Shown piece after piece: positions 610 to 62,800 of a stretch of 64,000 nt of DNA. Location of the stretch: positions 6,808,485 to 6,872,484 of the forward strand of contig NC_134027.1 in assembly GCF_964204645.1 (NCBI RefSeq), in the 5' to 3' direction. The notes below the pieces were generated by a model. It was given only the letters and a program-made list of their open reading frames with translations, was not told the DNA's origin and did no database searches. Position numbers and translations under genes: made by a program. The stretch is from Tubulanus polymorphus. Its lineage: Eukaryota > Nemertea > Palaeonemertea > Tubulaniformes > Tubulanidae. Every line of letters begins with the position of its first letter. Positions within the stretch are counted from its first letter, which is position 1.

Positions 610-3600
610 CGAGAGGACAGTGTCTGTCCTTAGCTTTTGTGAGTATGCAAGGAACAACTGTTTCTATTTTCAAAAGATTACTAGTAACATTTTATGACAG
701 GAATTCGAAATTTGAAGCAATGCATTGAAGATATACACAGCCCAAGGTTCATGCAATTTGGCAAGTTCAATTCATTTAAATTCTATGCTCAAATCTTCAG
801 CCAAAAGCATATACATGTGTATATACAATTACAAAGGCGATCTTGTTATTTCAATTCCATCATTTGTTCATTTGATACAATTAATGACAAATCATAGAAA
901 CGGCATTGCAAAACTGAAATTAAGTACGATGATAGAACAATGGTTAGTCTTTAAAAAAGTGTCTGACTATACCAATGATTCAAAAATAATACAGCCTAAA
1001 TCTATGAGATATCTTCGATACAAAGTTATTCTATATAGATATATCACAGCAAATACCTGTTGATCTACAACTGCATTTTCTTCTTCATAGTTCAATATCG
1101 AAGGAATGTCAACCAGACTTTTGTAATTCAACCCGGCCTCGATTTCTACAACTGGTTGAAACTGGCTGTTAGCGCCAATGTGCCCGGTGAAAAAGTCAAG
1201 ATGTTCCATACAAGCTGATGAAATCATATTCTGAAAAAATACCTAGCTCGATTACTCTACGTACAGGAACATACATATGTATCTAATCAAAATGAACATT
1301 TCCAAGGATCAAGTAACACAAAGGATCAAACAAGCCATAGCTGACAACAGTTCTCAGGCTCAGGCTCGAATTCATCGTCACTGAGGCAACACCGAAACTC
1401 CCTTGTGCTAGTTCCCATTGAATTTGGGATATGTTGTATAGGCCTATAGGACCAATAGCTAAATTTCTTGCAAGACAACTTATAGAATTTCGACCCTGTT
1501 CCTCAGTTATGACGTATGAACAAAGTTTTTAGTGCCTAGTTGTGCTAGGTAACAAACTGGGCCCATTCTTTGCACTGCTAGACCCCCATAATAACATTGT
1601 ACCCAAGTTTCATTATCAAGGTTGACCTACTATCAATGAAGCTAAGTCACTGAAACACACACACAGCACAAAAATAAGGGTCATGAAATAGAAGCCCGAG
1701 AACCAATGTTTATCATATATATGAATTCTTAAATTCTCGAAGGCATGTGCTCTGATGATTAATTGATTACCTGAAGACGACCAACTCGCACTTTAATACC
1801 ACCGACAGAACCGCGCTTCATCTCAGCCAATAAATCAATGAATTCCCTCCATTGAGGACCTCTAAAACCATAAAAAGATTAATGGTAATTCTATTCATAA
1901 TATATATTGATAATCAAGTTTTAATCATAAAACACCGGCTAACTTTCGACGATTAAAGATCAATTGGACCAGTTTAATCTAAAGGATCACTAGACAAACA
2001 GCGATGAGATTGCACAACACGCTATTACATAGAAGCAAATTGAGCACATGTGTAAACTACTGCCATGTATCAACAGATTGTCAAAACAACAACAGAACAG
2101 TTACTATCACAGACATCAGAACTAAAAAATGTCATTTTGAAAGTAGTTTTCATAAAGAGATTTTTCCAATATCTTGAAGATAGTTATAAAATGACATCCT
2201 ATGCAAATTGTCACTGGAGACAAATTAGGCTCTAATATGAAACTTACAAGTTTTCTCGACTAGGAAACATCAAATGTCTGTAAAACATTCACATATCTAG
2301 TTTAAACATTGTTCTCTATAAATCACTGCTAAAACCATCTTTCAGCCAAAAAATGTGTTATTCAATACAGTGCATGTGACCTATTGTACATGAAATACGT
2401 TTCTGCATAGTATTCAAATTGTACACCACTTAAGACTAACCTAATACTGTCTTCTCGAATTAGCATACAAAACGTCGGACGTCCCGATAGTTTCCATTGT
2501 TTAGACAGAAATGCTAAATCACTCTAGAAACCAGTTAAGATAAGACATGATTAGTTTCATGATTACATCCATTTCTGTGCATCAAATACAGATCCATGAG
2601 AATATCATTGAAATATATATCACCTTTAATTCATCAATGACTAGTGGCATATCTTGAGACAAATAGAAATCGTTCAGCTCAAACAACAGAGGGTAACATA
2701 ATACAGTCGTGTTGTAGATACGATAAAACTGAAATACATATAATAGTATTAAAAACTTGGGATAAAAGGATTTTTTCCTTTTTTTGGACAGTTATCTCAC
2801 ATACTTTTGAGGTGCCAAGTTGCCCAATTGGTCTGCGAGGTCTTCCAGTTAAGCCTAGTTTTCTATTAATGCCCATGAATTCAAAAACTTTCATCAGAGT
2901 ATTTGGCGACCAGATTTTCACCGGCTCGACCTGGTGAGGTGTTTGCGTTTGAATACCGTATGTTCCTAACAACTGTTGCAGACGAACGCTCTCAGCAATC
3001 AATACAATCTGAACACTCATGTCCTGAGCAGCTGACTATGCAACAAATTAAAAACAAAAACAAATATATGGATATGTTTCTAAAGTCATTATGAGTAACA
3101 ATTTATCGACACAGATGGACTATATTTTGAGAAGTGCTTTTGGTCACTGACCTGAAAACAAGAGTACCGAACATTTGGTCTCGGTCGATTTCCAGCTGGT
3201 AGAAATCGTCTGATCGGATCGACCTCACCAATATATAACAACTGGTTATCTATTGAACAAATAACATGTCGCATATTCAAATACATTGAAACAGTTCGTG
3301 TAATTGTTTTACATATAAAACCAGGGACAAACTACTTACACAATAATTGAGATATGATAAAAAGAGCCTGTCCCCACAGAAATAGACCATCTTGACTCGG
3401 CAATCTTTCTTGACTGCCCGGATTAGCCTTTTCAGCTTCGATTGATTCCTTAGGCACGTAGTAATACTTAGGTAACACGAATCCATCGTTTGTTTTTTGA
3501 AGGAGTGACTTAACTTTGTTCTGATAATGATCCATATCAGCAGAAGACCCAAAATAACAACCTACAAGCATTCACTATAAATTTAAGAGTTTCATAGATT

Positions 3601-6600
3601 TTAAGGGAGTTTTAGGAGCAAATTTGCATTTTATTATACTGTAGTAGTCAAATTTTGATTCTAGGGCAAGTTTGTTCCAATTCTTCCATGAAAATGGTAG
3701 GCGTAGTTGAATTTAGTCACAATTCAGATAGATATGAAGAATAAGTTAACGGCTGTTCACGAGCTTACTTTCAATCAGTAGAAAGACATCAAACAAAGGC
3801 CATTCACATTCAATACCATCAAACGTCTAGAAAGTAGTTTGAAAACATGAATTTCTCATCTGCATTCTGTCAACTACAAACACAACCGATTGTTACATGT
3901 AATACCTTGATTTCAGCTGGCCGATAGTATTTCCTGTTTTTGTCTTCTAGGACTGTCTTGTAACCGTCTCGAAGAAAGCGCTTTAAGCTGTATTTACCGT
4001 TGAGTTTACGTTTTAACTTATCTAACGTTCTGTTACGTAGCTTTTTCTCATGCAGAGCAAATGCCGGCCAACTCAACACCGGTATCAATGACGCATCCGT
4101 GTTCTGTCAATGATAAAATCAATAGATCATAGTCAGCTCATTTTCATATCTAAATATATTGTCAGTTACACACTAGATGGAGTTATATCATATTTACTTT
4201 AAACGCGAAAAAAATTCAGGTACAATCCAGGGGACAAGAATAAACCGATTCAACTTACCTTCGATGCAGACTCTCTGGGCAGTAAAGTCTCAAAAATAGT
4301 ACGATTACGATTATGCGCATCTACATCTACATAAATTACTGACCAGGCAGCTCCAACACTGCCGAACACATTGAAACCATTGATTGATTCTAGTGCTGCT
4401 TTTGCCATACCTATTGAACTAAACAAATATGTAAAATAGATAAAATATACCCGTTAATATCAAAACCTTACTGATCAGAAATAAAAGGCGTTATAATAAA
4501 TTTGGTATTACTATGGTATTTTCATTGAATTCGGGTGTGATTTGGGATATTTGTTCTCAGAAGAATGTTGGCGTTAAGTGAACACTGCCATTAAAAAGGA
4601 AGGCGTTACTATGTACTTCGAAATGCTGGTCAGTGTAGACAATACTATTCTAACTAAATCCATGAAATCAAGTACATTAGTCTTTTTATACAGCAAACCT
4701 ACCTAGCATGTAATTCAACCGATCCATTATTATATTTGTTTCCTCGTTCCCACATGCCATAGTCTGGAGTTCGGTATGCTCTTTCTAGATAAAATACTAG
4801 GTTCTGTATAAAATTCACTTCATCCGTAGTGAATATGATCTGAAATTGAATTGATACATGCATATACATTCTGCAACTATTTTTCTTATTCATACAGAAC
4901 CTTCACAATAATAGGGTTTCCAGTGGTAAGGCCAGTGTAAAAAGGAGTACTTATAGGGACTTTTTAGGCAATTTTCCACCCAAAAGAAGGGACTTTTTGA
5001 TTCGGAAAGAAGGACTTTGCTGTAAAATGCGGTCCCAGAAGGGAGCATTTTCACAATGCCTTCACTGGGATACTAGTCATTAAGATCAGTCATACATTGT
5101 AGGATAATTCCATAGCCTAACACTTTCCTGTAGGCCTATACTCAATCTTACTGACAATTGAATTACCAGGCCTGAGTAATAAAACACTTTGACAATCGAA
5201 TTCACGACAAAATTGCGCGCAAAAAAATACATAAAATCAAATTTGGAAGGACTTTTTTATCAAAAGGAAGGACTTACAGTCAAAAAAGACAAAGTTTTTC
5301 CAAAAGAAGGACAAAGAAAGACTTGGGAATGACCGCTGGACTATATTTGCAAGCAATATATAGGCCTACCTGTAAACTGGACTCGATCATTTCAACGAGA
5401 AACAGAATAAATAATGCTACAGCATCAATCTGCAGGTGTTCACCTTCGTCGTCTTTCGATAAAGCATCACCTGTTACCATGTCAAATTTACAATGTAACG
5501 CGTTCTTCGGCGATTGATTCTGTTTAAATCTTTCTACCTGTTAAAAGTAAAGAACAAACAACTTTTCCAATCACTGAAATTATACTAAAAAACCATTTCT
5601 CTATCTCGGAAAATGAATAAATTTGGTCAGACTAATTTTTATAAACTACCAGTAAAGTTATCAGCATTATTGTTGAATGATGAATATCTTCAGATTGCAT
5701 CACAAAATTCAATGTGTAGGCCTAACATAGCTCAGTTTCGGAAAATGAAGACATTATCTTTTTTCACCTTTTCAGATTGCTTCATCCAAGCCATCAGAAT
5801 TCCACGCATGCATTTTATTGTGCATTGAGCCAATTCGAATGTACGCCCTTTATCATTGTCAACTTTTCTGTAAAATGCAAACAGAATAATGAGACTATGC
5901 CTATGCATAATGCTAGAAATCATTCCTTTTCAAATCAATTCTGATCTTCAAGCACTGTATCTTTCTTAGCAATGGAAGAATACGAATAAAACTGACCTGT
6001 AACTAAGCGACAGAGACCAGATAGCAGCAGCGCAATAGAGACTATCCCGTATATGAGCTACCTTACATTCTTCAGGGCTGTTCGTTTGAGGAAAAAGACC
6101 AGTAGTCGGACTTTGGTACTCGAGCAAGTTCTTGCGCACTAAAAAACGAAATGGGAAAATATTCTTTCACAAGATTCTTAAGAAAACAATGCAGTTGAGG
6201 ATAAAATTTTACTTTATAAACGCGTTTATAACGACAGTCTTTTTGACAGATAATTCAGCATCGTTATATTTGACAATTGCATGAAATTTCCCTAATCACA
6301 GTAGGCTAATTGAAAATTTTGTTAGAAAAATATGGGGTTGTGGATTTATCAAGGGTTAGGCCATCCTCCCTCTGCAAGGACTCGAACCTGATGGCATCGC
6401 TACACTCTGCCACGGCACGAACCCCTGCATCAGTAGACCGGGTGCGCAGGTACATGCGCAGCTTTCCGAACGAAAACTGGCGGCACCAATCAGATTGCTC
6501 GTTGTATAATCGTTGAGGCAAATTTCAAGGAAGAACTATAAATGGGAAAACCCGGGCTAAAATAAAACGGGATTTCTGATTGGCTAAAAATCACATCATC

Positions 6601-7021: not shown

Positions 7022-7127
7022 AATAAAAGTAGTTGATAAACACTAGAATAACATGGTTAAACATTTCATGACCGTGTTAAAAGTAGTGGGGGACAAATTC
7101 ATTATTTTATGGTATAGGCTACTACGG

Positions 7128-7255
7128 GTTAGTCAGTGGTGTACCAGAACACCGTTTCAAGATGGCGGCTATGTAGAGGGCGCCATGGGACAATACAGTG
7201 AGAACAGGACATTACCACCGCATACAACACGGGCCGAAAGCATCCGTAGCAATAC
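7128..7255 (+). repeat. Unique outer part of left terminal inverted repeat, with YY1-type motif
   Basis: This segment matches the reverse complement of 16485-16612 almost base for base apart from a 6-bp insertion (attacc) in the left copy and a few substitutions in the outermost 20 bp. It contains AAGATGGCGGC (7159-7169), identical to the YY1/Pleiohomeotic core consensus. It lies only about 100 bp upstream of the PHKB start codon. Confidence 0.75.
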
Positions 7256-7283
7256 TGGTATCAGTGGTATCGGGGTATCAGTA

Positions 7284-10068
7284 GTATCACCGGTCTCGGA
7301 GAGGATCGGACAGTATCGCTGGTATCAGTGGTATCGTGGAATCACTAGTATCACCGGTCTCGGAGAGGATCGGACAGTATCACTGGTAACAGTGGTATCG
7401 GGGTAGCAGTAGTATCACCGGTCTCGGAGAGGATCGGACAGTATCACTGGTTTCAGTGGTATCGGGGTAGCAGTAGTATCACCGGTCTCGGAGAGGATCG
7501 GACAGTATCACTGGTAACAGTGGTATCGGGGTAGCAGTAGTATCACCGGTCTCGGAGAGGATCGGGCAGTATCACTGGTAACAGTGGTATCGGGGTAGCA
7601 GTAGTATCACCGGTCTCCGAGAGGATCGGGCAGTATCACTGGTATCAGTGGTATCGGGGTAGCAGTAGTATCACCGGTCTCGGAGAGGATCGGACAGTAT
7701 CACTGGTAACAGTGGTATCGGGGTAGCAGTAGTATCACCGGTCTCCAGAAGGATCGGGCAGTATCACTGGTAACAGTGGTATCGGGGTAGCAGTAGTATC
7801 ACCGGTCTCCAGAAGGATCGGGCAGTATCACTGGTATCAGTGGTATCGGGGTAGCAGTAGTATCACCGGTCTCGGAGAGGATCGGGCAGTATCACTGGTA
7901 ACAGTGGTATCGGGGTAGCAGTAGTATCACCGGTCTCCTGAAGGATCGGACAGTATCACTGGTATCAGTGGTATCGGGGTAGCAGTAGTATCACCGGTCT
8001 CCGAGAGGATCGGACAGTATCACTGGTAACAGTGGTATCGGGGTATCAATAGTACCACCGGTCTCCAGAAGGATCGGACAGTATCACTGGTATCAGTGGT
8101 ATCGGGGTAGCAGTAGTATCACCGGTCTCGGAGAGGATCGGACAGTATCACTGGTAACAGTGGTATCGGGGTAGCAGTAGTATCATCGGTCTCCTGAAGG
8201 ATCGGGCAGTATCACTGGTATCAGCGGTATTGGGGTAGCAGTAGTATCACCGGTCTCCAGAAGGATCGGACAGTATCACTGGTAACAGTGGTATCGGGGT
8301 AGCAGTAGTATCACCGGTCTCCTGAAGGATCGGGCAGTATCACTGGTATCAGCGGTATTGGGGTAGCAGTAGTATCACCGGTCTCCAGAAGGATCGGGCA
8401 GTATCACTGGTAACAGTGGTATCGGGGTAGCAGTAGTATCACCGGTCTCCTGAAGGATCGGACAGTATCACTGGTAACAGTGGTATCGGGGTAGCAGTAG
8501 TATCACCGGTCTCGGAGAGGATCGGGCAGTATCACTGGTGTCAGTGGTATCGGGGTAGCAGTAGTATCACCGGTCTCCAGAAGGATCGGACAGTATCACT
8601 GGTAACAGTGGTATCGGGGTAGCAGTAGTATCACCGGTCTCCTGAAGGATCGGGCAGTATCACTGGTATCAGTGGTATCGGGGTAGCAGTAGTATCACCG
8701 GTCTCGGAGAGGATCGGACAGTATCACTGGTAACAGTGGTATCGGGGTAGCAGTAGTATCACCGGTCTCCAGAAGGATCGGGCAGTATCACTGGTAACAG
8801 TGGTATCGGGGTAGCAGTAGTATCACCGGTCTCCAGAAGGATCGGGCAGTATCACTGGTATCAGTGGTATCGGGGTAGCAGTAGTATCACCGGTCTCCAG
8901 AAGGATCGGGCAGTATCACTGGTATCAGTGGTATCGGGGTAGCAGTAGTATCACCGGTCTCGGAGAGGATCGGGCAGTATCACTGGTAACAGTGGTATCG
9001 GGGTAGCAGTAGTATCACCGGTCTCCAGAAGGATCGGACAGTATCACTGGTAACAGTGGTATCGGGGTAGCAGTAGTATCACCGGTCTCCTGAAGGATCG
9101 GGCAGTATCACTGGTATCAGTGGTATCGGGGTAGCAGTAGTATCACCGGTCTCCGAGAGGATCGGGCAGTATCACTGGTAACAGTGGTATCGGGGTAGCA
9201 GTAGTATCACCGGTCTCCTGAAGGATCGGACAGTATCACTGGTAACAGTGGTATCGGGGTAGCAGTAGTATCACCGGTCTCGGAGAGGATCGGGCAGTAT
9301 CACTGGTGTCAGTGGTATCGGGGTAGCAGTAGTATCACCGGTCTCCTGAAGGATCGGACAGTATCACTGGTAACAGTGGTATCGGGGTAGCAGTAGTATC
9401 ACCGGTCTCCAGAAGGATCGGACAGTATCACTGGTAACAGTGGTATCGGGGTAGCAGTAGTATCACCGGTCTCCTGAAGGATCGGGCAGTATCACTGGTA
9501 TCAGTGGTATCGGGGTAGCAGTAGTATCACCGGTCTCGGAGAGGATCGGACAGTAACACTGGTAACAGTGGTATCGGGGTAGCAGTAGTATCACCGGTCT
9601 CCAGAAGGATCGGGCAGTATCACTGGTATCAGTGGTATCGGGGTAGCAGTAGTATCACCGGTCTCGGAGAGGATCGGGCAGTATCACTGGTAACAGTGGT
9701 ATCGGGGTAGCAGTAGTATCACCGGTCTCCAGAAGGATCGGACAGTATCACTGGTAACAGTGGTATCGGGGTAGCAGTAGTATCACCGGTCTCCTGAAGG
9801 ATCGAGCAGTAACACTGGTAACAGTGGTATCGGGGTAGCAGTAGTATCACCGGTCTCAAGAAGGATCGGACAGTATCACTGGTAACAGTGGTATCGGGGT
9901 AGCAGTAGTATCACCGGTCTCCGAGAGGATCGGACAGTATCACTGGTAACAGTGGTATCGGGGTAGCAGTAGTATCACCGGTCTCCTGAACGATCGGACA
10001 GTATCACTGGTATCAGTGGTATTGGGGTAGCAGTAGGATCACCGGTCTGGGAGAGGATCGGGCAGTAT
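7284..10068 (+). repeat. 64-bp satellite array, left arm (about 44 units)
   Basis: The unit begins gtatcaccggtct and is 64 bp. Unit starts at 7284, 7348, 7412 and the last at 10036 all fall on exact multiples of 64, so there is no net length change over 2.75 kb. Units differ at a few diagnostic sites: cggaga / ccgaga / ccagaa / cctgaa after accggtct, ggaca or gggca, and aacag or atcag. Each unit contains the near-palindrome cactggtaacagtg. Neighbouring two-unit blocks recur, for example the agcggtattgg variant in alternate units near 8220 and 8350, which suggests unequal exchange or conversion. Confidence 0.97.
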
Positions 10069-10375
10069 GCCATGAAGTTATAAGCAATAGTGAACTTTTA
10101 ATTCTAGATATTTAAGATTCAAGCTAGTGTAGTATATTTGAAATGTGCGATGAACTGTGTTAATTTGTAGTAATGTTTTAATTCAAAGTTTGTATGATCA
10201 TGATATCCTTAAGATGTTCCACAATAATAAATTAGATATATGTATCATAAATATGAATTAATTGACCTTAAGATTGTATCTACTTACACTACATTCAGAA
10301 GGAGGGCGATTTTTACCTACTTTGAGGAATTTGGATTTTAGGGGAATTTAACCCTGAGGATTTTTACCACTAGCC
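10068..10375 (+). repeat. 5'-truncated direct copy of the 11850-12552 element
   Basis: From about 10075 the sequence matches 12165-12530 in the same orientation: the ttttaattctagatattt block, then gatgttccacaataataaa, then cattcagaaggagg, then gatttttacctactttga. The left boundary coincides with the end of the satellite array, so this copy is either truncated by the array or was cut when the array formed. Confidence 0.7.
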
Positions 10376-11099
10376 GCTTTATATACCATCGTCGAACTGT
10401 CTATTTTACAGATGCACAGCCACTATTTGACCATAAGTGGCAAGAAAATTATAAGTAGAGGGAACTGTCCCAGATTACCGCGAACAGCAGAATTAACAGA
10501 ACGTTTCTTTACCCTGAGCAGATATTTGCGAAATTTGATGAAAAATTTAAATTGTGGGCAATGTACATCTCTTAACAAATACATAGTAAAATACCCACGA
10601 TATATACCGTCATACTCTCTATACCGTCAAACTTTTCTTCACCGATGTGGATGGTATATCGGGGGTTGACTGTATTACAAAACAAAATAATTAATTCAAG
10701 TGATGAAAATATAATAGTAATAAAACTTGACGAGGACGTATCCAGGAAAATGCAAAATGTGATTTACTTCTTTAAAATGAAATATTACACGCTTCCGCAA
10801 ATTGTTCGCAAATGTTCTACATTTGAATTATCGATCCTGTAATGGGCTCAAGTAAAATTAAACCACCTGCATATTTTAACGCTCCAAGATCTGGCTATGT
10901 GACTACCAAAACTATGTAAGCTATCGATGCAAGCGGTGAAAAACAAAGAAGAAATAAGCCCCGGCCCTTGTTTTAATCCAATGAAAAATTCCGGTTTCAT
11001 GTAACCGGCATATTTCCATATGAAATAAAAATCAATTAAAATATTCTTCGTTTCAGTAATGATTTGAAAAGTAATGAGTAATGAATACGGTCGAAAGGG

Positions 11100-11752
11100 G
11101 GGTCATCCCTAGATTCCCCAGGTTCTATGTTCCCCGGGCCCTATATTCCCCGGGTTCCATGTTCCCCGGGTCCTATATTCCCCGGGTTCTATATTCTCCC
11201 AAAGGAAATAATACAACGAGGGTTCCATATATTCTCCAAATAATAAAAACGTTGACCGGTGTCCATACCTATGCTTTTTAATAATAGTCCATCAATCATG
11301 TCATGTATTTGCTAGATACTATAAATTTGATACAGACAAGGTGCTTTTATTTTTTGCAAACGCCAGAACTTAACGAGAGAAATTCGAGATGACAATTAAT
11401 CGATCGATCAGGTAATTTATTCAGTAGTTACGTCACACTGTAAAAAGGCTTTGAAACTTGCCCGGGAGATTTTTAATTGTGATTCATGTCGTTAATTTTC
11501 ATTTAATAGAATAAAGATAAAGATAAAGATACATGTAGTGCCGATTTTCAACATCAACTAATTGGCAGCCTGACGCGTTATCATGCTCTGAATTCCCGGC
11601 GCCGAAATTGAGTGTATGTGGCCATGGGAACAAAGGACCTTTTTATACATTTTCCATAATCTTCCAGGAATATCGGATCCGGGGAATATAGAACCCCTTT
11701 TATGTTTAATCTCCCTTGGGGGAACATAGGACCCGAGGAACATAGGTATGGA
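11100..11752. repeat. Inverted pair of TTCCCCGGGTCCTATA-type minisatellites
   Basis: 11100-11230 holds about six units of a roughly 17-bp motif (tattccccgggtcctat and variants). 11660-11752 holds degenerate units of the same motif in reverse complement. The pair encloses about 430 bp without recognised coding sequence. Likely termini of a small non-autonomous element nested in the foldback centre. Confidence 0.6.
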
Positions 11753-11849
11753 CCCGTCGAAAGCACGACTTGCGTCCAGTCTTGGAATAATAATAAGTAT
11801 AGCCGCGAGTACTCCAAGTCCAGTAGAACAGCATACAATCATGTGTACA

Positions 11850-12552
11850 CTATGGTAAAAAACTTCTAGGTAGAAATCCCCAAATATTCAAAGTAGGTAA
11901 AAATCCCCACTTGGTGATTTTCAAGACCATTTCAAAGCAAAATGATACTCCAATTTTATTAATTTGCGATGAGACTGAAATATGTTTGGACTGTGCAATG
12001 AAATCTTTCGTTGTGATAAATTCTTAAGTAAACTCTTAGATTTCAATAAATTGTTAGAATTAATAAGAATAATACACTTTTATTTGTAATACCTTTAAAT
12101 TCGAACCGGAATATCTTTGACCTGTGAACTCTTGTTAACTTGTGGTATATTTGAGCTGCGCGATGCAATGAATTATGAGCAATAACGAACTTTTAATTCT
12201 AGATATTTTAGTTTCAAACTAGTGTAATATATTTGACAAGTGCTAAGAACCCTTTCATTAAGCTGTGTGATAACTTTTGAGTACTAATTTAGTATTAATG
12301 AATTTTTGATTTGTAGTATGTTTGAATTCAAGTAGTATATGCAATAGTTTGTATACTCATGATATCCTTATGATGTTCCACAATAATAAATAGGATATGT
12401 GTATCATAAATATGAAATACCGGTAAATATGAATTAATTGACCTTAAGATTGTATCTACTTAAACTACATTCAGAAGGAGGGGGATTTTTACCTACTTTG
12501 AAGAATTGGGGATTTTTACCACGGGGATTTTTACTGCACGGTAAAAGACACA
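11850..12552. mobile_element. Non-autonomous inverted-repeat element with TAAAAATCCCC termini
   Basis: The left end (about 11850-11912) carries gtaggtaaaaatcccc and the right end (about 12476-12545) carries its reverse complement ggggatttttacctac, in arms of about 60 bp. The interior is AT-rich and non-coding. A direct partial copy is at 10068-10375, and a related fragment (ggatttttacctgttacc) lies near 12700-12720. Confidence 0.6.
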
Positions 12553-12844
12553 GATTATCCGAGGTGATTGTGAAAAACACCAGGGAAAATTGGAAATTTT
12601 TGTAAAACTATTAAAGTTTTTCAACTAAAGAATATTACAGTATTTCATTGACTTTTGCTGTGAAATCAAATTTGGGGGGATTTTGGGTTTTTTTTACCTA
12701 GGAGGGATTTTTACCTGTTACCAAATTATACTCTTCATCCATATGTGTACAGTTGCGTCCGCCTTACTCAGTGCTGGTCAACTTAGTATGACACTTAAGT
12801 TGTTGAATTTTACAAATAGGTATTTTGATGGACCTTCTATTTAC

Positions 12845-13592
12845 ACGGGATACGCCCATAATACCTCCGCCCAAAATGCCTCCGTCCAAAATCCCACACC
12901 CAGAATCCCTCCACCCAGAATACCCTCATATGTGTCCAAAATACCTCCACCCAGAATTTAAAAAAAAATACTATAATTATATTATTTAGATGTTTAAAGT
13001 ACCACCAATATTGACTATTATACATGTATAGGATCATATATAATGTATTACGGTATATATAAACCTACTGAATAATAATTGAATAACAATTAATGACAAT
13101 GTTCACTTGCAATTAGTTTTGGCTGGGAATATTAATTAGTTTATCTCATGTCTTTAATCTTATGCTAGATTTCTCTGGAAACTATTCAATATTTAGATTA
13201 TAGAATATTAATTAGTCCTATAATCTAAGAAAACAATGTACTACATTTCGCTTTACACACTGAATTCAGTTCATTTCCATTTAAGTGCAACTATGATCAC
13301 TGAAATTAACATTATACTTTGATTTGCTCAATTAACTACTTTTAAACTATAGAACTTTGGTTTATTTGAGTATTGCCTGTAAATTAAAACTTGGGGGGGG
13401 GGACAAAATATTCATTCTAAAAAATTATATTTCTAATAGGTTCAAATTTTTGTCCTTCGGGCATAAACCCATTAGATCTAGGGCCTGGAGGTATTTTGGA
13501 CACATATGAGGGTATTCTGGGTGGAGGGATTCTGGGTGTGGGATATTTGGGTGGAGGTATTTTGGGCGGAGGTATTATGACCCGGATTCATT
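12845..13592. mobile_element. Inverted-repeat element with CCTCCACCCAGAAT minisatellite arms
   Basis: The arm at 12845-12960 is a row of 20 to 22 bp units (acctccgcccaaaat, ccctccacccagaat). The arm at 13480-13592 is its reverse complement over about 110 bp, including the distinctive catatgtgtcc segment. The loop of about 520 bp is AT-rich and contains a G9 run near 13393. The open frames crossing the arms are low-complexity and not credible genes. Confidence 0.65.
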
Positions 13593-14443
13593 TACACAGC
13601 CGATAGTCAATTGGTGAAATATTTTCAATACCAATGCTACTAAGGCTGAGTTGTGGTCAATGGTAGTTCATTCAATGTTATAAAAACTGTGATGATCTGA
13701 TACATTACTGCGTTGTATGCTTTTGATATTTTTGTGTTGTATGACTTCATTGGTGATTATATTTCTCAGGTATCATTTACATTTTACTTTACATTTTATT
13801 GTATCATATATTGTACATAATAGCAATGATTTATTCTCCATAGTCTTAATCTGCAATCTTGATATTGGTGCATATGTTTGTTTACAATATACTTAATTAG
13901 GCTGTTTAAAATTGAGAAACACTAATTAGTGAGTGACTTGTGACTTAACTAATTTTTTTTAAATAAAGAAGTTTCCAGTTTCTAGGCGCCATTTTGTGGC
14001 GGTCCCTCGAGGTCCCCATTGTTGCGATAATTTGCACTCATTTTTAAAACATAAGTTTAGATTGAATATCATATAGTTCTGCAGTCCCTTGCTCGACGAA
14101 ATTAATTTATACACCATTTTTAAGGAAACGAAATGCAGATATTTGCTGGCGTTTCTTGGAATTTTTGAACGCAACAATTGAGAACACTGACGATGTGACC
14201 CCAAGGACCGCATATCTTAACCGCGCGTAAAAGAAATCGCAACATTCATTAATTTCAAAATATCTAAGTATCTCTTAAAGCTATATTTCCAATTTTTACA
14301 GAGTTTAAAGAGGGTTATTTGCAGTTTAAGCCTGCGTTGAATATTTTTTTGAATATCTTTCCTGACGACTGATCTGTACCCGCTTGAGTTTGAGATTACC
14401 CGATAAAGTTAGATAATTTGATACGCCTTCAACAAATCTTCCA

Positions 14444-14585
14444 GGGGCCAGTTGCATAGTTATGGCTTAGACTTAAGACCAGTCTAAGACCAACTTAGTT
14501 CTATAGCCAATCTAACAACTTGAGACCAGTCTTAAGATTTAAGACCACTTTTGGACTTAAGTCACAAACTGTGCAACTGGCCCCC
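14444..14585. mobile_element. MITE with GGGGCCAGTTGCA termini
   Basis: The left end reads GGGGCCAGTTGCATAG and the right end is the complement of GGGGGCCAGTTGCACAG. The interior (cttaagacc / ggacttaag and related blocks) is self-complementary. At 142 bp it is a typical hairpin MITE. Related elements with GGNCCCAGTT-type ends occur at 51992-52122 and 53647-53747. Confidence 0.75.
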
Positions 14586-14741
14586 GATCCTTAGCTGCTA
14601 TGTCCTATTCAAAATCAAAAAACTTAGTACGGAGAGTATTACCAGGCAGTGGATACGGCGCACCAAAAAATGAAACCAAATTTTGCAACTCTGGAAAATA
14701 AATACATGTACCACCGATAAAAATTCCACTGTAATACTAGT

Positions 14742-14808
14742 CAAACCTCGCTACAACGAGATCTTTTATAACGAAATATCGGTTTAATCAAACGTGTCCG
14801 GCGCAAAA
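14742..14808 (+). mobile_element. Pogo/Tigger-like terminus fragment abutting the right satellite array
   Basis: The sequence agtcaaacctcgctacaacg followed by tataacgaa resembles the terminal inverted repeat of pogo/Tigger-type elements. No matching second end is present; the fragment ends just before the satellite array. Family assignment is from memory of the terminal motif and is tentative. Confidence 0.4.
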
Positions 14809-14811
14809 AAG

Positions 14812-16484
14812 TCTACTGCTACCCCGATACCACTGTTACCAGTGATACTGCCCGATCCTCTCCCAGACCGGTGATACTACTGCTACCCCAATACCACTGA
14901 TACCAGTGATACTGCCCGATCCTTCAGGAGACCGGTGATACTACTGCTACCCCGATACCACTGATACCAGTGATACTGTCCGATCCTCTCAGAGACCGAT
15001 GATACTACTGCTACCCCGATACCACTGTTACCAGTGATACTGTCCGATCCTCTCAGAGACCGATAATACTACTGCTACCCCGATACCACTGTTACCAGTG
15101 ATACTGTCCGATCCTCTCCGAGACCGGTGATACTACTGCTACCCCAATACCACTGTTACCAGTGTTACTGCCCGATCCTTCTGGAGACCGGTGATACTAC
15201 TGCTACCCCGATAGCACTGTTACCAGTGTTACTGCTCGATCCTTCCGGAGACCGGTGATACTACTGATGCCCCGATACCACTGTTACCAGTGATACTGTC
15301 CGATCCTCTCGGAGACCGGTGATACTACTGCTACCCCGATACCACTGATACCAGTGATACTGCCCGATCCTCTCGGAGACCGGTGATACTACTGCTACCC
15401 CGATACCACTGTTACCAGTGATACTGTCCGATCCTCTCGGAGACCGGTGATACTACTGCTACCCCGATACCACTGTTACCAGTGTTACTGCTCGATCCTT
15501 CTGGAGACCGGTGATACTACTGCTACCCCGATAGCACTGTTACCAGTGATACTGTCCGATCCTCTCGGAGACCGGTGATACTACTGATACCCCGATACCA
15601 CTGTTACCAGTGATACTGTCCGATCCTCTCGGAGACCGGTGATACTACTGCTACCCCGATACCACTGATACCAGTGATACTGTCCGATCCTTCTGGAGAC
15701 CGGTGATACTACTGCTACCCCGATACCACTGATACCAGTGATACTGTCCGATCCTCTCAGAGACCGATGATACTACTGCTACCCCGATACCACTGTTACC
15801 AGTGATACTGCCCGATCCTCTCCGAGACCGGTGATACTACTGCTACCCCGATACCACTGTTACCAGTGATACTGTCCGATCCTTCAGGAGACCGGTGATA
15901 CTACTGCTACCCCGATACCACTGTTACCAGTGATACTGCCCGATCCTCTCAGAGACCGATGATACTACTGCTACCCAGATACCACTGTTACCAGTGATAC
16001 TGTCCGATCCTCTCAGAGACCGATGATACTACTGCTACCCCGATACCACTGTTACCAGTGATACTGTCCGATCCTCTCCGAGACCGGTGATACTACTGCT
16101 ACCCCGATACCACTGATACCAGTGATACTGTCCGATCCTTCAGGAGACCGGTGATACTATTGCTACCCCGATACCACTGTTACCAGTGATACTGCCCGAT
16201 CCTCTCCGAGACCGGTGATACTACTGCTACCCCGATACCACTGATACCAGTGATACTGCCCGATCCTTCTGGAGACCGGTGATACTACTGCTACCCCGAT
16301 ACCACTGATACCAGTGATACTGCCCGATCCTTCTGGAGACCGGTGATACTACTGCTACCCCGATACCACTGTTACCAGTGATACTGCCCGATCCTCTCCA
16401 AGACCGGTGATACTACTGATACCCCGATACCACTGTTACCAGTGATACTGTCCGATCCTTCTTGAGACCGGTGTTACTACTGAT
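14812..16484 (-). repeat. 64-bp satellite array, right arm (about 26 units, inverted)
   Basis: Same unit as the left array in reverse complement. Unit marks at 14871 and 16471 are exactly 25 x 64 bp apart, so register is again perfect. A variant with cagagaccgat in place of the usual accggt occurs several times here (near 14990, 15055, 15750, 15950, 16015) but is not seen with that neighbour in the left arm. The arms have therefore partly diverged. Confidence 0.97.
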
Positions 16485-16612
16485 ACCAGTGTTGCTACGG
16501 ATGCTTTCGGCCCGTGTTGTATGCGGTGGTCCTGTTCTCACTGTATTGTCCCATGGCGCCCTCTACATAGCCGCCATCTTGAAACGGTGTTCTGGTACAC
16601 CACCGAACAACC
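16485..16612 (-). repeat. Unique outer part of right terminal inverted repeat
   Basis: Reverse complement of 7128-7255, lacking the 6-bp attacc. It carries the same YY1-type core on the minus strand (16570-16580). Confidence 0.75.
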
Positions 16613-16621
16613 CTACTACGG

Positions 16622-47756: not shown

Positions 47757-48558
47757 ATGACTGCTCCTCAATCTGACGGCTTGGGACGAGTGCAGGCTCG
47801 CTGTAATTTTGTTGCGCAGGACGAAATCTGGTACGGTTACAGAAATGATCAACCTTTGTCATTCATTAGCAACTATTTCTAATGACTATTTCTATTCCTT
47901 TAGAAGGCCATGTTTGCCCATGCAAAGACAAGTGGAAAGTCCATCGTATTTATTTGATTTTTTCTCAATCTATATACATATTTCTTCTGTTGATTTCTTA
48001 TAGGAAGGCACACGTCCACCATGAAGAAAATGCCTCGAAGCGTTGGGACAATGTCTGGCACTTCTTGAAGACATCAAAAGAAGAGGTAATTATGTCGTAA
48101 CACTTAATGTGTTTGAATGTTCCTCGCTTTGAGTTTTGATTAGTTAAACTTTATCAAAAGTAGATAATTCTAGGAGGCCATTTTATATGGGATAGTGACA
48201 CCAGAAAATGTAGAATAAAACCATTTGGTACCGTTTTACGTATATACGTTGTATAGTTTCGGTTGAGTTACGACCGTGGTTGTTTTGGTTTCAGCTCCTG
48301 AAAGATGAACTGAAAACTCTACGGAAGGAGCGTCCACCAAGAGAAATCCCGACTCCACTGAAGTTACCACCAATTACACCAACACACGAATATATTGAAG
48401 TGTTACCCTCTCCGCGTCCGTTCCCACGCACCACAGCACAGCAAATCGGATGGCGTTCGTCTCAACGCGACTTACTTTTGGACCGTTATGGTGGATATGC
48501 CCGCGGGAAAGGAGGCTTGATAAAGCAATTGAAGTGGCCAGCAGAAGCTGTGGGCTAG
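47757..48558 (+). CDS. CIMIP1: CIMIP1-like ciliary microtubule inner protein (C20orf85 homologue)
   Basis: Three coding exons: 47757-47830, 48004-48085, 48295-48558 (phases 2 and 0), 139 residues; the human protein is 137. The protein starts MTAPQSDGLG, then CNFVAQDEIW, HHEENASKRWDNVWHFL, LKDELKTLRKE, a proline-rich centre (PPITPTHEYIEVLPSPRPFP), then TTAQQIGWRSSQ and LLLDRYGGYARG. This order of FV.QD.IW, KRW, PPITP and IGWRS elements is what I recall for C20orf85/LLC1, a protein inside axonemal doublet microtubules. It has no membrane segment. The first donor, ATCTG|GTACGG, is inside the frame that reads on through the intron; choosing it restores the conserved W. Homology is from memory of the family. 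Confidence 0.78.
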
Positions 48559-52871: not shown

Positions 52872-54824
52872 TCATTGTTGATGCGATTTCAATGGATTAT
52901 CAACAACGCATGGGAACAGATGATTGTTGAAAATGAACCATTTTATTTGATTGAAACCGTATAAAAAGACGATGAGTACTGGCATATACTGTATGAATCC
53001 CCATTTCAAGGTCTGCCAAAATCCGGTGTATATTCTGTAGAATTATCATAAAAGAAAATAATCAAATCCATCAATGTATGTAATATTTCCGTCAATATTT
53101 CCTCATTCAGATCAGTTTCTTCATTCAGAAGTTTTATTTTATGTATGATAGAACAGTGGAAACTCATTATAACAACCTCGGGGGTAACAATTTGTCGGTT
53201 AAAAACCTAGAAATTTGTCCCTAATACGACAATTTCAATAAATCCTCAATGGATATAACGAAGTTTAGGTTATAACGAACAGATTTTTTGGTCCCCTGAA
53301 GAAGTTTTTTGTAATGAGGTTTCCGAAGTCCTGCTTGGACATTATCTGCATGAATTCAAATCAGTTAATATAGTTTCTTCAATTAGTCAAATATAACTAT
53401 CGTTTGTGAGGCTGGTTCGATTATTTTTGGATAAAAGGATACTCAACTGTTGGCGTTGGATAGATAATTGTGCCATTAATAGTAAATGGTTGACCAGATC
53501 CTCGGCCTGACATCCAAACCGGGTAAATATTCTCCAGTCTTGTACTCACTGCAAAATATACATAAATGATCCATTCAAATCTTATAATCATGGTAGATAT
53601 TATTTTCTTAGAAAGATTTTACAATACTTGGGATCATAAGTATTCTGGACCCAGTTCCACAGTTGTGAGTAAGAGCTAAAATTAGTTGAAATTTGCAATG
53701 AGTTAACTCTGAGTCAAATCTTAGCACTGAACTGTGGAACTGGGTCCTGTTGTTTACATACCATTTCTTTGTTGATAATCGTAAAAAATTTTTTGCAAAT
53801 CAAACGCTTCAACATAAGCACTGTTGCCATCAATGGGTGGTGACTAAAAGTAGCAAAAAAACTACTCTAAAGATGCACATCATATTAATCTACCAGTAAA
53901 CCAATTGATCATATACCTACATCATATCGAATATCAGTTCCTTGGTGCTTTAAGGGAGTTTTTTGTACCCACACCAAATCTGAAATGAAGCTGAAATCTG
54001 CTCCAGGCAAACGGCTTTCATGATTCACATAACCAAGGCTTTGCATATAAAATAATGGACGTAACTGAAACAAAAAAGATTTTGACGAATCATTATCCAT
54101 ATCACTGATGAGAGATGGAGGTCTGGTGTTTGAAAAATACAAAATGATGTATGTATGAAAAATCAAGCTTACCATCAAACTTGAATAAAATGTGAGAAGT
54201 AGTTTGACTCCATAAATCTGTTCAGAATCTGCTAAAGGCACTTGTAAGTTCAGAGACAGATAGTCATTAATACCATCACCATTCTTGTCTACTTCTCTTG
54301 ACTGAAACAATTATTGCATGTCAGTAGCTAACCTGTTGTTCAACTATGAAGAATTTAGGCAAATTGAAGTTACTAATGAATACCTTGATTAATGGAACAC
54401 GTAGATTGTTTTGCTGCATTTTGTTGAAATTATTGTAAGTGCTCCATGTTAAATATCCATTTGGCGTCTCGAGAAATAAGATGATATTGTGCTGAAATTT
54501 CACCTGCAATTGCTCCTTGTAGACATCTGTCTTCTTCCAAAAGCCTTAAAAATGTCATTAAAGCCAAAATTGAAGAAATATTTACACACCATAGCACGAT
54601 TGTCCACTTCAATAAACTTAATTTGATCTGAATGAATGGAATGTTTTCAAGGCTTTCTATAGAATTTTGAAACACGAAAGCTTACCGAAACTTTTATATA
54701 CAACAAAAAATGGAGCAATAAATGATACGAGAGAAATGAATATGATAAAGAAAGTGGCTTTCGAGCAGAAATGGGCCTTATATCGCCGAACTTCAGGGTG
54801 GTTATAAATTTCGAGCATCGCCAT
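52872..54824 (-). CDS. TMEM231: Transmembrane protein 231 (ciliary transition zone)
   Basis: Component of the MKS/B9 complex at the ciliary transition zone, needed for the diffusion barrier at the cilium base. Seven exons on the minus strand: 54824-54686, 54544-54384, 54301-54173, 54064-53921, 53843-53762, 53548-53443, 53034-52872. All join in phase and give 307 residues; the human protein is 316. Start MAMLEIYNHPEVRRYKA; first transmembrane helix about 24-44; luminal/extracellular domain with GYLTWSTYNNFN, NLRVPLI, DKNGDGINDYL and YGVKLLLTF; then GFWQTLKWGFIQY leading into the second helix, about 265-282; short tail. The donor of exon 4 is TATGAT|GTAGGT and of exon 6 GTTGA|GTATCC, the latter weak but the only phase-consistent choice. 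Introns 5 and 6 each contain a MITE. Confidence 0.94.
53153..53326. mobile_element. MITE with GGAAACTCATTATAACAA-type ends in TMEM231 intron 6
   Basis: The left end (CAGTGGAAACTCATTATAA) pairs with the right end, complement of GGAAACCTCATTACAAAAAA. The interior holds ttataacgaa blocks typical of pogo/Tigger-derived MITEs. About 170 bp, between exons 6 and 7. Confidence 0.55.
53647..53747. mobile_element. 101-bp MITE with GGACCCAGTTCCACAGTT termini in TMEM231 intron 5
   Basis: The termini are perfect complements over at least 17 bp: GGACCCAGTTCCACAGT at the left and its reverse complement ACTGTGGAACTGGGTCC at the right. The interior is partly self-complementary, so the RNA would form a near-complete hairpin. 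The near-identity of its ends suggests a fairly recent insertion or selection on the hairpin. Confidence 0.8.
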
Positions 54825-59867: not shown

Positions 59868-62800
59868 ATGGGAGCTGTAACAAGTATTTGTCATTGCAAA
59901 ATGCCGAATACATCGCGTGTAACGGACGCTTTTCGCCATGCGACTGTAAGATACACAACATGTTGTATTGGACCCCCTGGAAGTCGTTTAAGAGATAGGA
60001 AACCTGATCCACTGATTACTACTCCTGGATATGAAGGTAAACAGGCAAAATTTCAAACAATTCTTAGTTGGACCATGGACGTAAACTAGATTATACGTTA
60101 ACGGTTGGACGAATGAGTTCTATTTCCACCATGAGGAATAATTAGTAAAAGTTAGAGACAAAAACTCGTAATGGCAAAATTTAAGTAATTTACCTAGGAA
60201 AAAAGGAAGTCTACTGCATTGCATCTAATGGATTGTTTTGTTCTGCCTTTCAATCACAGTATTTTACCTAGATGTGAAGAAATTTTGATCACGTATTTTC
60301 TCAGGTTCTATCAGCGTTAAAAAGCGTACTATTCTACGCAGCTAAAACTTAAAAGAATCATTGAATTTGCTAGATCAACTTAAAGAATTATACTCGTAAT
60401 GTTTTTGCGTAGGCTGACGGTAACAAGAAGATAAGTTATTAAAGTGCCAAATTATCTACAGTAATTTGTATACATAATGAGCCCTCATTATGTACTGGTA
60501 CAAGGATCCTCTGTTCAAACTAATTCTTATGCATTGCATAAAATGTATATACGTATATATGCTATAAATGTCATTACAATCCATCTTATATACAGAAATC
60601 ACGGATGAAGATAAAGATGTGCTCCGAATTCTTGATGTTGATCTAGATATCCCTCAAAATACTTCCGATCATCACACAGATAAATATGAAGTTTCTGAGA
60701 ATAGTCGAGACGGCAGCGGGCCTGCAAGTCTCGTCATACGCCGAGGACGAAAATTCAATCTCAGTTTAAAACTTTCTCGACCATTTGAAATCATCAAGGA
60801 TGATCTCAAAATCATATTTGAGACCAGTAAGTTTCTATCCTATTGTCTGGTAAATAATTATGAGTAGCTTGTTCCAAGTGAGGTTCTGCTAATAATTTTC
60901 TTAGGTGAAAGTCCAAAAGCCAGTAGAGGAACAAGCGTTACTATTGTACTATCCGACTATGACCAACCTGGACGATGGACCGCTGAAATTAAATCACATA
61001 ATGTTAACGGTGTCACTATTGCCGTTTCTACTCCATATGATTGCATCGTTGGAAAATGGAGTCTTCAAGTGGATACATTCCTGAAATACAAGCCAAATGG
61101 AAAAGCGTATCGCTATTTCCATAAAAATCCAGTTTATATTCTTTTTAATCCATGGTGCCCAGGTAGGTAATTCAATTCGGTTATCAACTACTTCGATTTT
61201 CAAGAATCCATAGAAGAAAAGAAAAAATGAAAAATGAAACTGCGCAGATTTTCAATTGTGTGGACTCTGTACCGCGGATTTACTTCGATTTTGTTTATGC
61301 GTAAAACTCCAATCAGACAGTTACCGAAGACTCTCTATGAGCTATTTGAATTTACTTACTCAGATGATGGTACGTATATGTCCGATGAAGAAGGAAGAGA
61401 AGAATACATCCTCAACGATGTTGGAATGGTATTTGCAGGAACCCATAGACAGATATTTGCCAAACCCTGGAACTTTGCTCAGGTACGTTACGAAAACCAT
61501 CTAAAAACTTGCGCTATCAATTTATTCACGTCTTATTCAATTTTGAACATTTCACATGGAATTGTTACTTTCTTTGAAACTTTGTGTTAGTACTAGGCAA
61601 TACAAGTGCTTTGCAAATCTGATGCGCTTTCAGTATTGTCTGTTTAGCTTTCTGTTTTGTTTCAATTAAGTTTGAAGATTTTGTGTTGGATTGCGTATTC
61701 TATCTATTGGATCGAGCTAAAATGCCATATCGATTGCGAGGAAGTCCTGTTCATGTTGTACGGAAGATCTCAGCCATTGTAAGTACCCAGTAATCGTCAT
61801 GTTTAAATGCAAAACCTAGTCAAAATATATTACAATATATACATGGACTTTTATTTATCTACCGGAAAAACGTAAGAAGCTTTCGGCCTTTTTTTACAAA
61901 TGGAACACGCCGCAAAGTATAAAAAATGGACAATGTAATAATGATTACATTACAACTATTTCCAAATCTCGATGTATCAAATTAGGCAGCCGACAAAAAT
62001 TAACCCCAGTAAGTCGTTTGCCGGTTCATGCTGGATGGGCATTTATTTACACGAATCAGAACCGAAATTTCCATACTTCGTCAAGCCCCTGTTTCGTTCC
62101 CAGCGGGTTTGTAAATCAATCGATCAATCAGATAGATAAGAGCGACTATTTCAGGATACAAAAAGAAAAGAAAATGCAAAATATCATTTATTCAACGTGA
62201 TAGTGTACGTATTTTAGGTAAACACTCAAGATGAAGGAGGTCTACTGGTTGGTAACTGGTCCGGAGACTTTGGAAGATACACTAATCCAATAGCATGGAC
62301 AGGTAGTGAGGCAATCATTGAGGAATTCTGGAGGACCAAACAGTCAGTTAGATATGGACAATGTTGGGTATTCTCTGGATTAGTGACTACAGGTACGTAC
62401 GTCCGTGTCAATCAGGTTGGTAAAACCTATCTTGAAATTATCAAAATAGCATTAGTTGAGCTGTTGTGCGGGTATTATGTTCAAGCCTAGCCTATATGAT
62501 TCCAGTGTGTCGAGCAATAGGAATACCCAGTAGATGTGTAACGAATTTTGCATCTGCCCACGACACCGATGGTAGCATAACGGTGGACACCCATTGGGAT
62601 GCAAATGGCTCACCAATGACCGAATACAATGCTGATTCTATTTGGTACGTATGGTGATTCTGTTAACTTGGTCTTCTAATGATTGACAACGAGCTGAACA
62701 CCGAAATGTGAAGCCAGTGAAAAAGATGCATCTATCAGAAGTTGCATTTTTGTAGGAATTTCCACGTGTGGAATGATGTGTGGATGGCACGGCCGGATCT

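What the first reader, a model, noticed from the sequence alone, without database searches (positions are those of the whole stretch)
7119..16621. 9.5 kb foldback-like transposon whose arms are inverted arrays of one 64-bp satellite
Seen: 44 units on the left and 26 on the right of the same 64-bp sequence in opposite orientation, about 128-bp unique inverted caps, and a 9-bp direct repeat (ctactacgg) at both outer boundaries. Known: foldback elements (Drosophila FB, Galileo) and some Mutator-like elements have long terminal repeats made of subrepeats and target duplications of 7 to 11 bp. Inference: the whole segment moved as one unit and may spread satellite arrays around the genome. A 64-bp satellite with this unit inside terminal repeats is not something I recognise.
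Basis: partly seen in the sequence, partly recalled or inferred. Interest (0 to 1): 0.85.

Follow-up and report, generated by a model that had tools for sequence, protein, structure and literature searches.

The report
Foldback transposon with 64-bp repeat arms
A 9.5-kb stretch of an animal genome is a transposon that carries no enzyme of its own and whose two arms are mirror-image arrays of a 64-base repeat; near-identical copies sit at other sites in the same genome, so it jumped recently, but elements of this general kind are already known.

Summary
The element is window 7127-16612 (9,486 bp), flanked by an 8-bp, not 9-bp, duplication (CTACTACG). It has 127/125-bp caps, 44 left and 26 right units of a 64-bp repeat in opposite orientation, and a 4.7-kb middle with no ORF of 130 aa or more. 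In the 268-Mb assembly the cap has 37 hits, 29 of them in 14 inverted pairs; 10 of 14 pairs have perfect 8-bp duplications, each different. Two copies on different contigs (c08, c09) differ at 1 of 9,151 bases and have different duplications. Two insertions have matching empty sites: one identical over 260 bp, one in a dispersed repeat. So it moved as one unit, recently. Middles differ by 0.1-0.5%, while arms differ largely by whole 64-bp units. No autonomous partner was found: none of 198 MULE, Merlin, P-type or hAT domain matches lies within 14 kb of 60 terminus-like sites. Architecture matches the foldback elements Tetris, Tm1 and Galileo. I read it as a new family of a known kind, most likely moved in trans by a Mutator-like transposase (inferred, about 55%).

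The parts
7119..7126 (+). left copy of the 8-bp target-site duplication CTACTACG
7127..7253 (+). left cap, beginning GGTTAGTCAGTGGTGTACCAGAACACC
   Evidence: 37 genome hits, 29 of them in 14 inverted pairs
7254..10068 (+). left arm: 44 tandem copies of the 64-bp unit
   Evidence: length changes between copies
10069..14812 (.). middle region, no stop-to-stop ORF of 130 aa or more; 98.9-99.7% identical by blastn in seven other copies, partly deleted in c06
11854..12534 (.). dispersed repeat with about 55-bp inverted ends, inside the middle region
   Evidence: query 1786-2466
12845..13589 (.). nested MITE-like insert with about 93-bp inverted ends (96%); absent from older relatives c12, c13 and c14
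   Evidence: query 2777-3521
13962..14408 (.). segment shared with a high-copy element whose matches often come as inverted pairs within about 1.8 kb
   Evidence: query 3894-4340
14444..14585 (.). short repeat with palindromic ends (ggggccagttgca...tgcaactggcccc); one further copy listed at C3:10673134 (94%)
   Evidence: query 4376-4516
14813..16487 (-). right arm: 26 tandem copies of the same 64-bp unit, opposite orientation
16488..16612 (-). right cap, beginning (read inward) GGTTGTTCGGTGGTGTACCAGAACACC
16613..16620 (+). right copy of the 8-bp target-site duplication

Best explanation
It is a recently active, non-autonomous foldback-type DNA transposon. SHOWN: the whole unit, caps included, inserts at new sites and duplicates 8 bp of target; two target sites are known without the element and are uninterrupted; the young copies share a nested insert that older relatives lack, so they descend from one progenitor; arms differ between copies largely by whole 64-bp units. 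INFERRED: a transposase made by another element binds both caps, whose tips differ consistently (AGTCA versus GTTCG inside GGTT-----GTGG), cuts the unit out and joins it at an 8-bp staggered cut. The arrays lengthen and shorten by replication slippage or unequal exchange. They may hold many weak binding sites for transposase or host proteins, as reported for Galileo. I take the transposase to be Mutator-like at about 55%, because of the 8-bp duplication and the long, internally repeated ends.
For: 14 inverted cap pairs, 10 with perfect and mutually different 8-bp duplications. c08 and c09: 9,151 bp each, 1 difference, different contigs and duplications. c04: joined flanks identical over 260 bp to an uninterrupted place about 10 kb away. 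c07: 43 listed uninterrupted matches to the repeat it entered, two read and aligned without a gap at the junction. Middles 0.11-0.53% different in 21 pairs of 7 copies; 39 of 55 gaps in 14 same-arm alignments are exact multiples of 64 (right arms 22 of 22, left arms 17 of 33). Nested insert shared by c01-c09 and absent from c12-c14. MULE duplications are 8-11 bp (passages of PMC6446971).
Against: No autonomous copy was found, so the transposase class is a guess; none of 56 MULE-domain matches lies nearer than 146 kb to any of 60 terminus-like sites. c11 and c12 lack duplications and c11 has left-type ends on both sides. In the left arms 16 of 33 gaps are not multiples of 64: 11 are 1-4 bp and 5 are 60, 63, 66, 127 and 127 bp; mismatch in aligned array reaches 5.4%, so the whole-unit picture is clean only for the right arms. 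No empty allele of the window site was seen.
Confidence: 0.92

Rival explanations
1. The mirrored arrays are an assembly artefact or a local inversion of an ordinary satellite.
For: Inverted tandem arrays are hard to assemble (general knowledge), and long reads could not be checked.
Against: The same architecture with different flanks is found at 14 places, 10 with perfect duplications, and two empty sites exist. The rows listed of 404 unit matches lie in element copies.
Confidence: 0.03
2. The element belongs to the P superfamily, like Galileo: a foldback-shaped element moved by a P-type (THAP) transposase.
For: Galileo has long internally repeated ends and belongs to the P superfamily (passages of PMC3573991 and PMC4079207). 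The genome holds 20 P-type domain matches.
Against: No P-type match within 79 kb of a terminus-like site. From memory, Galileo makes 7-bp duplications and its ends start with CA; here the duplication is 8 bp and ends start with GG.
Confidence: 0.12
3. The element is moved by a Merlin (IS1016-like) or hAT transposase.
For: Both are recalled to make 8-bp (Merlin 8-9 bp) duplications, and Merlin ends to start with GG. The genome has 43 Merlin-domain and 79 hAT-domain matches.
Against: Nearest matches are 14.7 kb (Merlin) and 31 kb (hAT) from a terminus-like site. The three Merlin loci read, of 43, showed no inverted ends resembling these. hAT ends usually start C/T-A-G (recalled), which does not fit.
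Confidence: 0.25
4. The copies spread by segmental duplication or recombination, not transposition.
For: c11 and c12 have no matching duplications, and arms of this length could recombine between copies.
Against: Each of c01-c10 is bounded by the same tips (c10 short of one base at its right end) and its own 8-bp duplication, and the two empty sites are uninterrupted with one target copy.
Confidence: 0.03

Closest known systems
Tetris (foldback element of Drosophila virilis; PMC4079207)
   Same: End cap, then an outer domain of tandem repeats of variable number, then a middle without coding capacity; 8-9 bp duplications in three complete copies, 9-10 bp in four rearranged ones; no autonomous copy found (passages).
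   Different: Tetris repeat is about 220 bp and its units also form kb-size arrays outside the element; here the unit is 64 bp, one arm holds 59 units, and arrays outside copies were not seen. Tetris also has an inner domain. No sequence comparison was made.
Tm1 (Mutator/Foldback family of root-knot nematodes; PMC3169594)
   Same: Composite ends with internal tandem repeats, short tip motifs that differ between the two ends, non-autonomous and MITE-like forms (passages).
   Different: 9-bp duplications, a 14-bp repeat motif, sizes of about 0.9-2.3 kb in the passages seen, and a Phantom-type MULE transposase was found; none was found here.
Galileo (P superfamily, Drosophila; PMC3573991)
   Same: Long ends whose length changes through tandem-repeat expansion, independently in the two ends (passages).
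   Different: P-type transposase; about 210-bp repeats in two or three copies; ends up to about 1.26 kb against up to 3.9 kb here.
Rehavkus (MULE-related; insects and annelids; PMC6446971)
   Same: MULE-like structure with terminal inverted repeats and a minisatellite before the 3' end (passages).
   Different: 9-bp duplications, a PHD-finger transposase and a minisatellite described before the 3' end only; the Rehavkus transposase was not searched for here.
Sea-urchin TU and Drosophila FB/NOF elements (recalled, not read)
   Same: Foldback shape with arms built of short tandem repeats; TU recalled to make 8-bp duplications.
   Different: Repeat units are shorter (recalled); no sequence comparison was made.

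Membership tests
Foldback (FB-type) elements as a structural class | long terminal inverted repeats that contain internal tandem repeats of variable number | tested here: met
Foldback (FB-type) elements as a structural class | target-site duplication of about 7-11 bp and precise insertion | tested here: met
   8 bp in 10 of 14 paired copies; two empty sites
Foldback (FB-type) elements as a structural class | dispersed copies at unrelated sites | tested here: met
Mutator-like elements (MULE) | MULE DDE transposase in an autonomous copy with the same ends | tested here: inconclusive
   56 MULE-domain matches, nearest 146 kb from a terminus-like site; a divergent copy could be missed
Mutator-like elements (MULE) | 8-11 bp target-site duplication | tested here: met
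   range from PMC6446971
Rehavkus | 9-bp target-site duplication | tested here: not met
   8 bp in 10 of 10 copies with a perfect duplication; the 9-bp figure is from PMC6446971
Rehavkus | transposase with a PHD finger | not tested
   no genome search left
P superfamily / Galileo | P-type transposase in an autonomous copy with the same ends | tested here: inconclusive
   20 matches, nearest 79 kb away
Merlin | IS1016-like transposase in an autonomous copy with the same ends | tested here: inconclusive
   43 matches, nearest 14.7 kb; three loci read without matching ends
hAT | hAT transposase in an autonomous copy with the same ends | tested here: inconclusive
   79 matches, nearest 31 kb
Tetris | sequence homology to Tetris ends or repeats | not tested
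   the Tetris sequence was not at hand

The most novel reading that the evidence does not exclude
The family is moved by a transposase outside the four classes searched (MULE, P, Merlin, hAT), one that reads a deliberately asymmetric pair of tips, and the 64-bp arrays are a functional, length-tunable array of binding sites whose size sets how often each copy moves.
Probability: 0.08. Interest if true: 0.7.

Novelty: new member of a known kind. Interest (0 to 1): 0.42.

Why it matters
In Tetris only three complete copies were reported (PMC4079207, passages). This family offers nine large, precisely bounded, closely related copies whose arms differ in unit number, plus two exact empty sites. One can ask how inverted satellite-like arrays grow, whether array length affects mobility, and whether such elements seed satellite DNA or cause inversions. 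Which transposase moves the family is open.

Tried and rejected
Assembly artefact and segmental duplication: rejected for c01-c10 by their duplications and by the c04 and c07 empty sites. A coding middle: rejected; no ORF of 130 aa or more lies inside the middles of c01-c09, and the ORFs of 224, 158 and 130 aa listed for c02, c04 and c05 run across an arm and its flank. The larger copies as autonomous elements: no support. By their translations, c12 seems to carry a nested gypsy-like retroelement, and c14 a Polinton-like and a gypsy-like element; Pfam was not run on those. Pfam on seven other ORFs (four from c11, two from the solo-cap locus s16, one from s22) gave a reverse transcriptase in c11 and one in s16, a weak receptor match in c11, weak matches in s22 and none of the transposase families considered here. 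Two places with a solo terminus, on C5 and C7: 3.4 and 3.7 kb from the tip read, no second end by BLAST or exact motif. Motif GGGTTTTCTGTGATGTAACAGAAAACC: judged a separate high-copy repeat because two copies share their left flank, and its sites were dropped from the 60 termini; 5 of the 50 places are of this kind. Secondary structure of the unit and of the left cap: not better than shuffles (z -0.68 and -0.62). Three Merlin loci: no matching ends. A first unit-splitting script was crude and is not used for numbers. Paper searches brought up nothing closer than the papers cited; one search returned none, one paper each, and mostly unrelated papers, so they are weak tests of absence. No search was made for a 64-bp unit as such.
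Full report
THE OBSERVATION. The window holds 44.0 units of a 64-bp repeat at 7254-10068 and 26.2 units of its reverse complement at 14813-16487. The whole right array pairs with the left at 92-94%. The outer caps are inverted copies, 95% identical over 120 bp with a 5-bp indel. The element is 7127-16612.

OTHER COPIES. The window lies in a 267.8-Mb assembly of 77 contigs. The 127-bp cap has 37 matches there; 29 fall into 14 inverted pairs (c01 is the window copy; c14 has a third, partial match) and 8 stand alone. Ten of the 14 pairs (c01-c10) have perfect 8-bp duplications, all different. c13 has CTCCAACG if a base at its left end is taken as lost, c14 matches at 7 of 8, and c11 and c12 have none. 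c11 has left-type ends on both sides and arms with 2.5 kb of 97% inverted similarity reaching beyond the 64-bp array. A terminus pattern with up to 3 mismatches gave 50 places against 0 for the reversed pattern; 5 of the 50 belong to a separate repeat. A shorter pattern with 1 mismatch gave 44 places against 2 for its control.

MOVEMENT AS ONE UNIT. c08 (contig C9) and c09 (contig C2) are 9,151 bp each and differ at one base, with different duplications. I joined the flanks of c01-c10 with the target copy once and searched the genome. The c04 junction matches C2:5352049-5352309 without a difference: over the 260 joined bases the place carries CGTCTTAT once and no element. c07 sits in a dispersed repeat: the 43 other rows listed are all matches that run through its junction, at 92-94% identity (some may be two inverted ends of one repeat), and the two that I read align without a gap at the junction and carry CCATTTCT once. 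The other eight junctions, the window's included, gave no match in the listed rows; only 40 of 1,071 first-look candidates were scored, so this says nothing about their absence.

AGE AND ORIGIN. Among seven copies with intact middles (c09 left out as a near-duplicate of c08, c06 for its deletion, c10 for lacking a middle), the middles differ by 0.11-0.53% in 21 pairs, indels aside. The middle contains dispersed repeats. The nested insert at 12845-13589 is in c01-c09 but absent from the older relatives c12, c13 and c14, whose matching middle blocks are 82-90% identical. The young copies thus appear to descend from one progenitor. c10 is a 594-bp derivative made of the two caps and a few units, with its own duplication.

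ARRAYS. Across c01-c09 the left arms measure 1,854-3,453 bp and the right arms 392-3,912 bp, cap included. I aligned the same arm in seven pairs of copies. In the right arms 22 of 22 gaps are exact multiples of 64. In the left arms 17 of 33 are; of the other 16, 11 are 1-4 bp and 5 are 60, 63, 66, 127 and 127 bp. Mismatch in aligned array is 0.1-5.4%; I suspect that the higher values come from alignments shifted by whole units, but did not test it. The two arms of one element differ in length without an evident rule. Array length thus seems to change faster than sequence, largely by whole units, separately in each arm; slippage or unequal exchange is the likely cause (inference). In the c08/c09 pair both arrays have the same length, so transposition need not change it. 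The rows listed of 404 matches to a two-unit query all lie inside identified copies, so I saw no free-standing satellite; the unlisted rows are unknown. Neither the unit nor the left cap folds better than its shuffles.

TRANSPOSASE. I found none encoded in the copies. I searched the genome for four domains: Merlin (43 matches), MULE (56), P-type (20) and hAT dimerisation (79). Against 60 terminus-like sites gathered, the nearest are 14.7 kb, 146 kb, 79 kb and 31 kb away. Three Merlin loci, of 43, showed no such ends. The 60 sites include weak matches and both ends of each copy, and a partner sharing only the outermost bases would be missed. One inverted pair of related tips, C3:19113630/19116082, 2,453 bp apart, is the best lead and could not be read.

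COMPARISON. By structure this is a foldback element. Tetris of Drosophila virilis has the same order of cap, tandem-repeat domain and non-coding middle, 8-10 bp duplications and no known autonomous copy (passages of PMC4079207). Tm1 of root-knot nematodes has tip motifs that differ between its two ends, as here, and a Phantom-type MULE transposase (passages of PMC3169594). Galileo shows independent tandem-repeat expansion in its two ends and belongs to the P superfamily (passages of PMC3573991), so shape does not fix the class. MULE duplications span 8-11 bp, and Rehavkus elements carry a minisatellite before the 3' end but make 9-bp duplications (passages of PMC6446971). I therefore call it a new family of a known kind, with Mutator-like mobilisation as the likeliest but unproven class.

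VERDICT. What is unusual is the size and youth of the arms and the natural experiment in array length; what is missing is the transposase.

Noticed in passing
window 48214-48555 (+), 53912-54310 (-), 60568-61167 (+): Exon-like ORFs matching LLC1, transmembrane protein 231 and a transglutaminase N-terminal domain, which suggests a ciliated animal.
   Followed up: partly
c11, C2:8888634-8908906 (L029-L031): A 20.3-kb relative with left-type caps at both ends, no duplication, and arms that share 2.5 kb of 97% inverted similarity including ORFs of 249 and 327 aa with no Pfam match.
   Followed up: partly
C4:8846799-8846990 (L043): A 192-bp palindromic element with tips GGTTATATACTGGTGTACCAGAACACC and a cap-like inner sequence, apparently without an 8-bp duplication.
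   Followed up: partly
caps, window 7127-7253 and 16488-16612; also L040, L041, L042: The motif AGATGGCGGCTATGTAGAGGGCGC (with small changes) is kept in old, otherwise diverged relatives; its AAGATGGCGGC core resembles the YY1 site (recalled).
   Followed up: no
C2:5330567 (c04) and C2:5352049-5352309 (L053): c04 interrupts what looks like the start of a coding sequence (ATGGCGAACTACGGCCGTGATTACGATG...), of which an identical uninterrupted copy lies about 10 kb away; a recent gene duplication or two haplotypes assembled side by side.
   Followed up: no
high-copy motif GGGTTTTCTGTGATGTAACAGAAAACC, many places: A separate near-palindromic repeat, sometimes in short tandem groups; the pattern had 364 places, which also count this element's own ends and of which only the first hundred or so were listed.
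   Followed up: no
C4:11491800-11511799 and C1:18812000-18849200 (c12, c14): Old copies that seem split by nested gypsy-like and Polinton-like elements, judged from ORF translations only; described, not studied.
   Followed up: no
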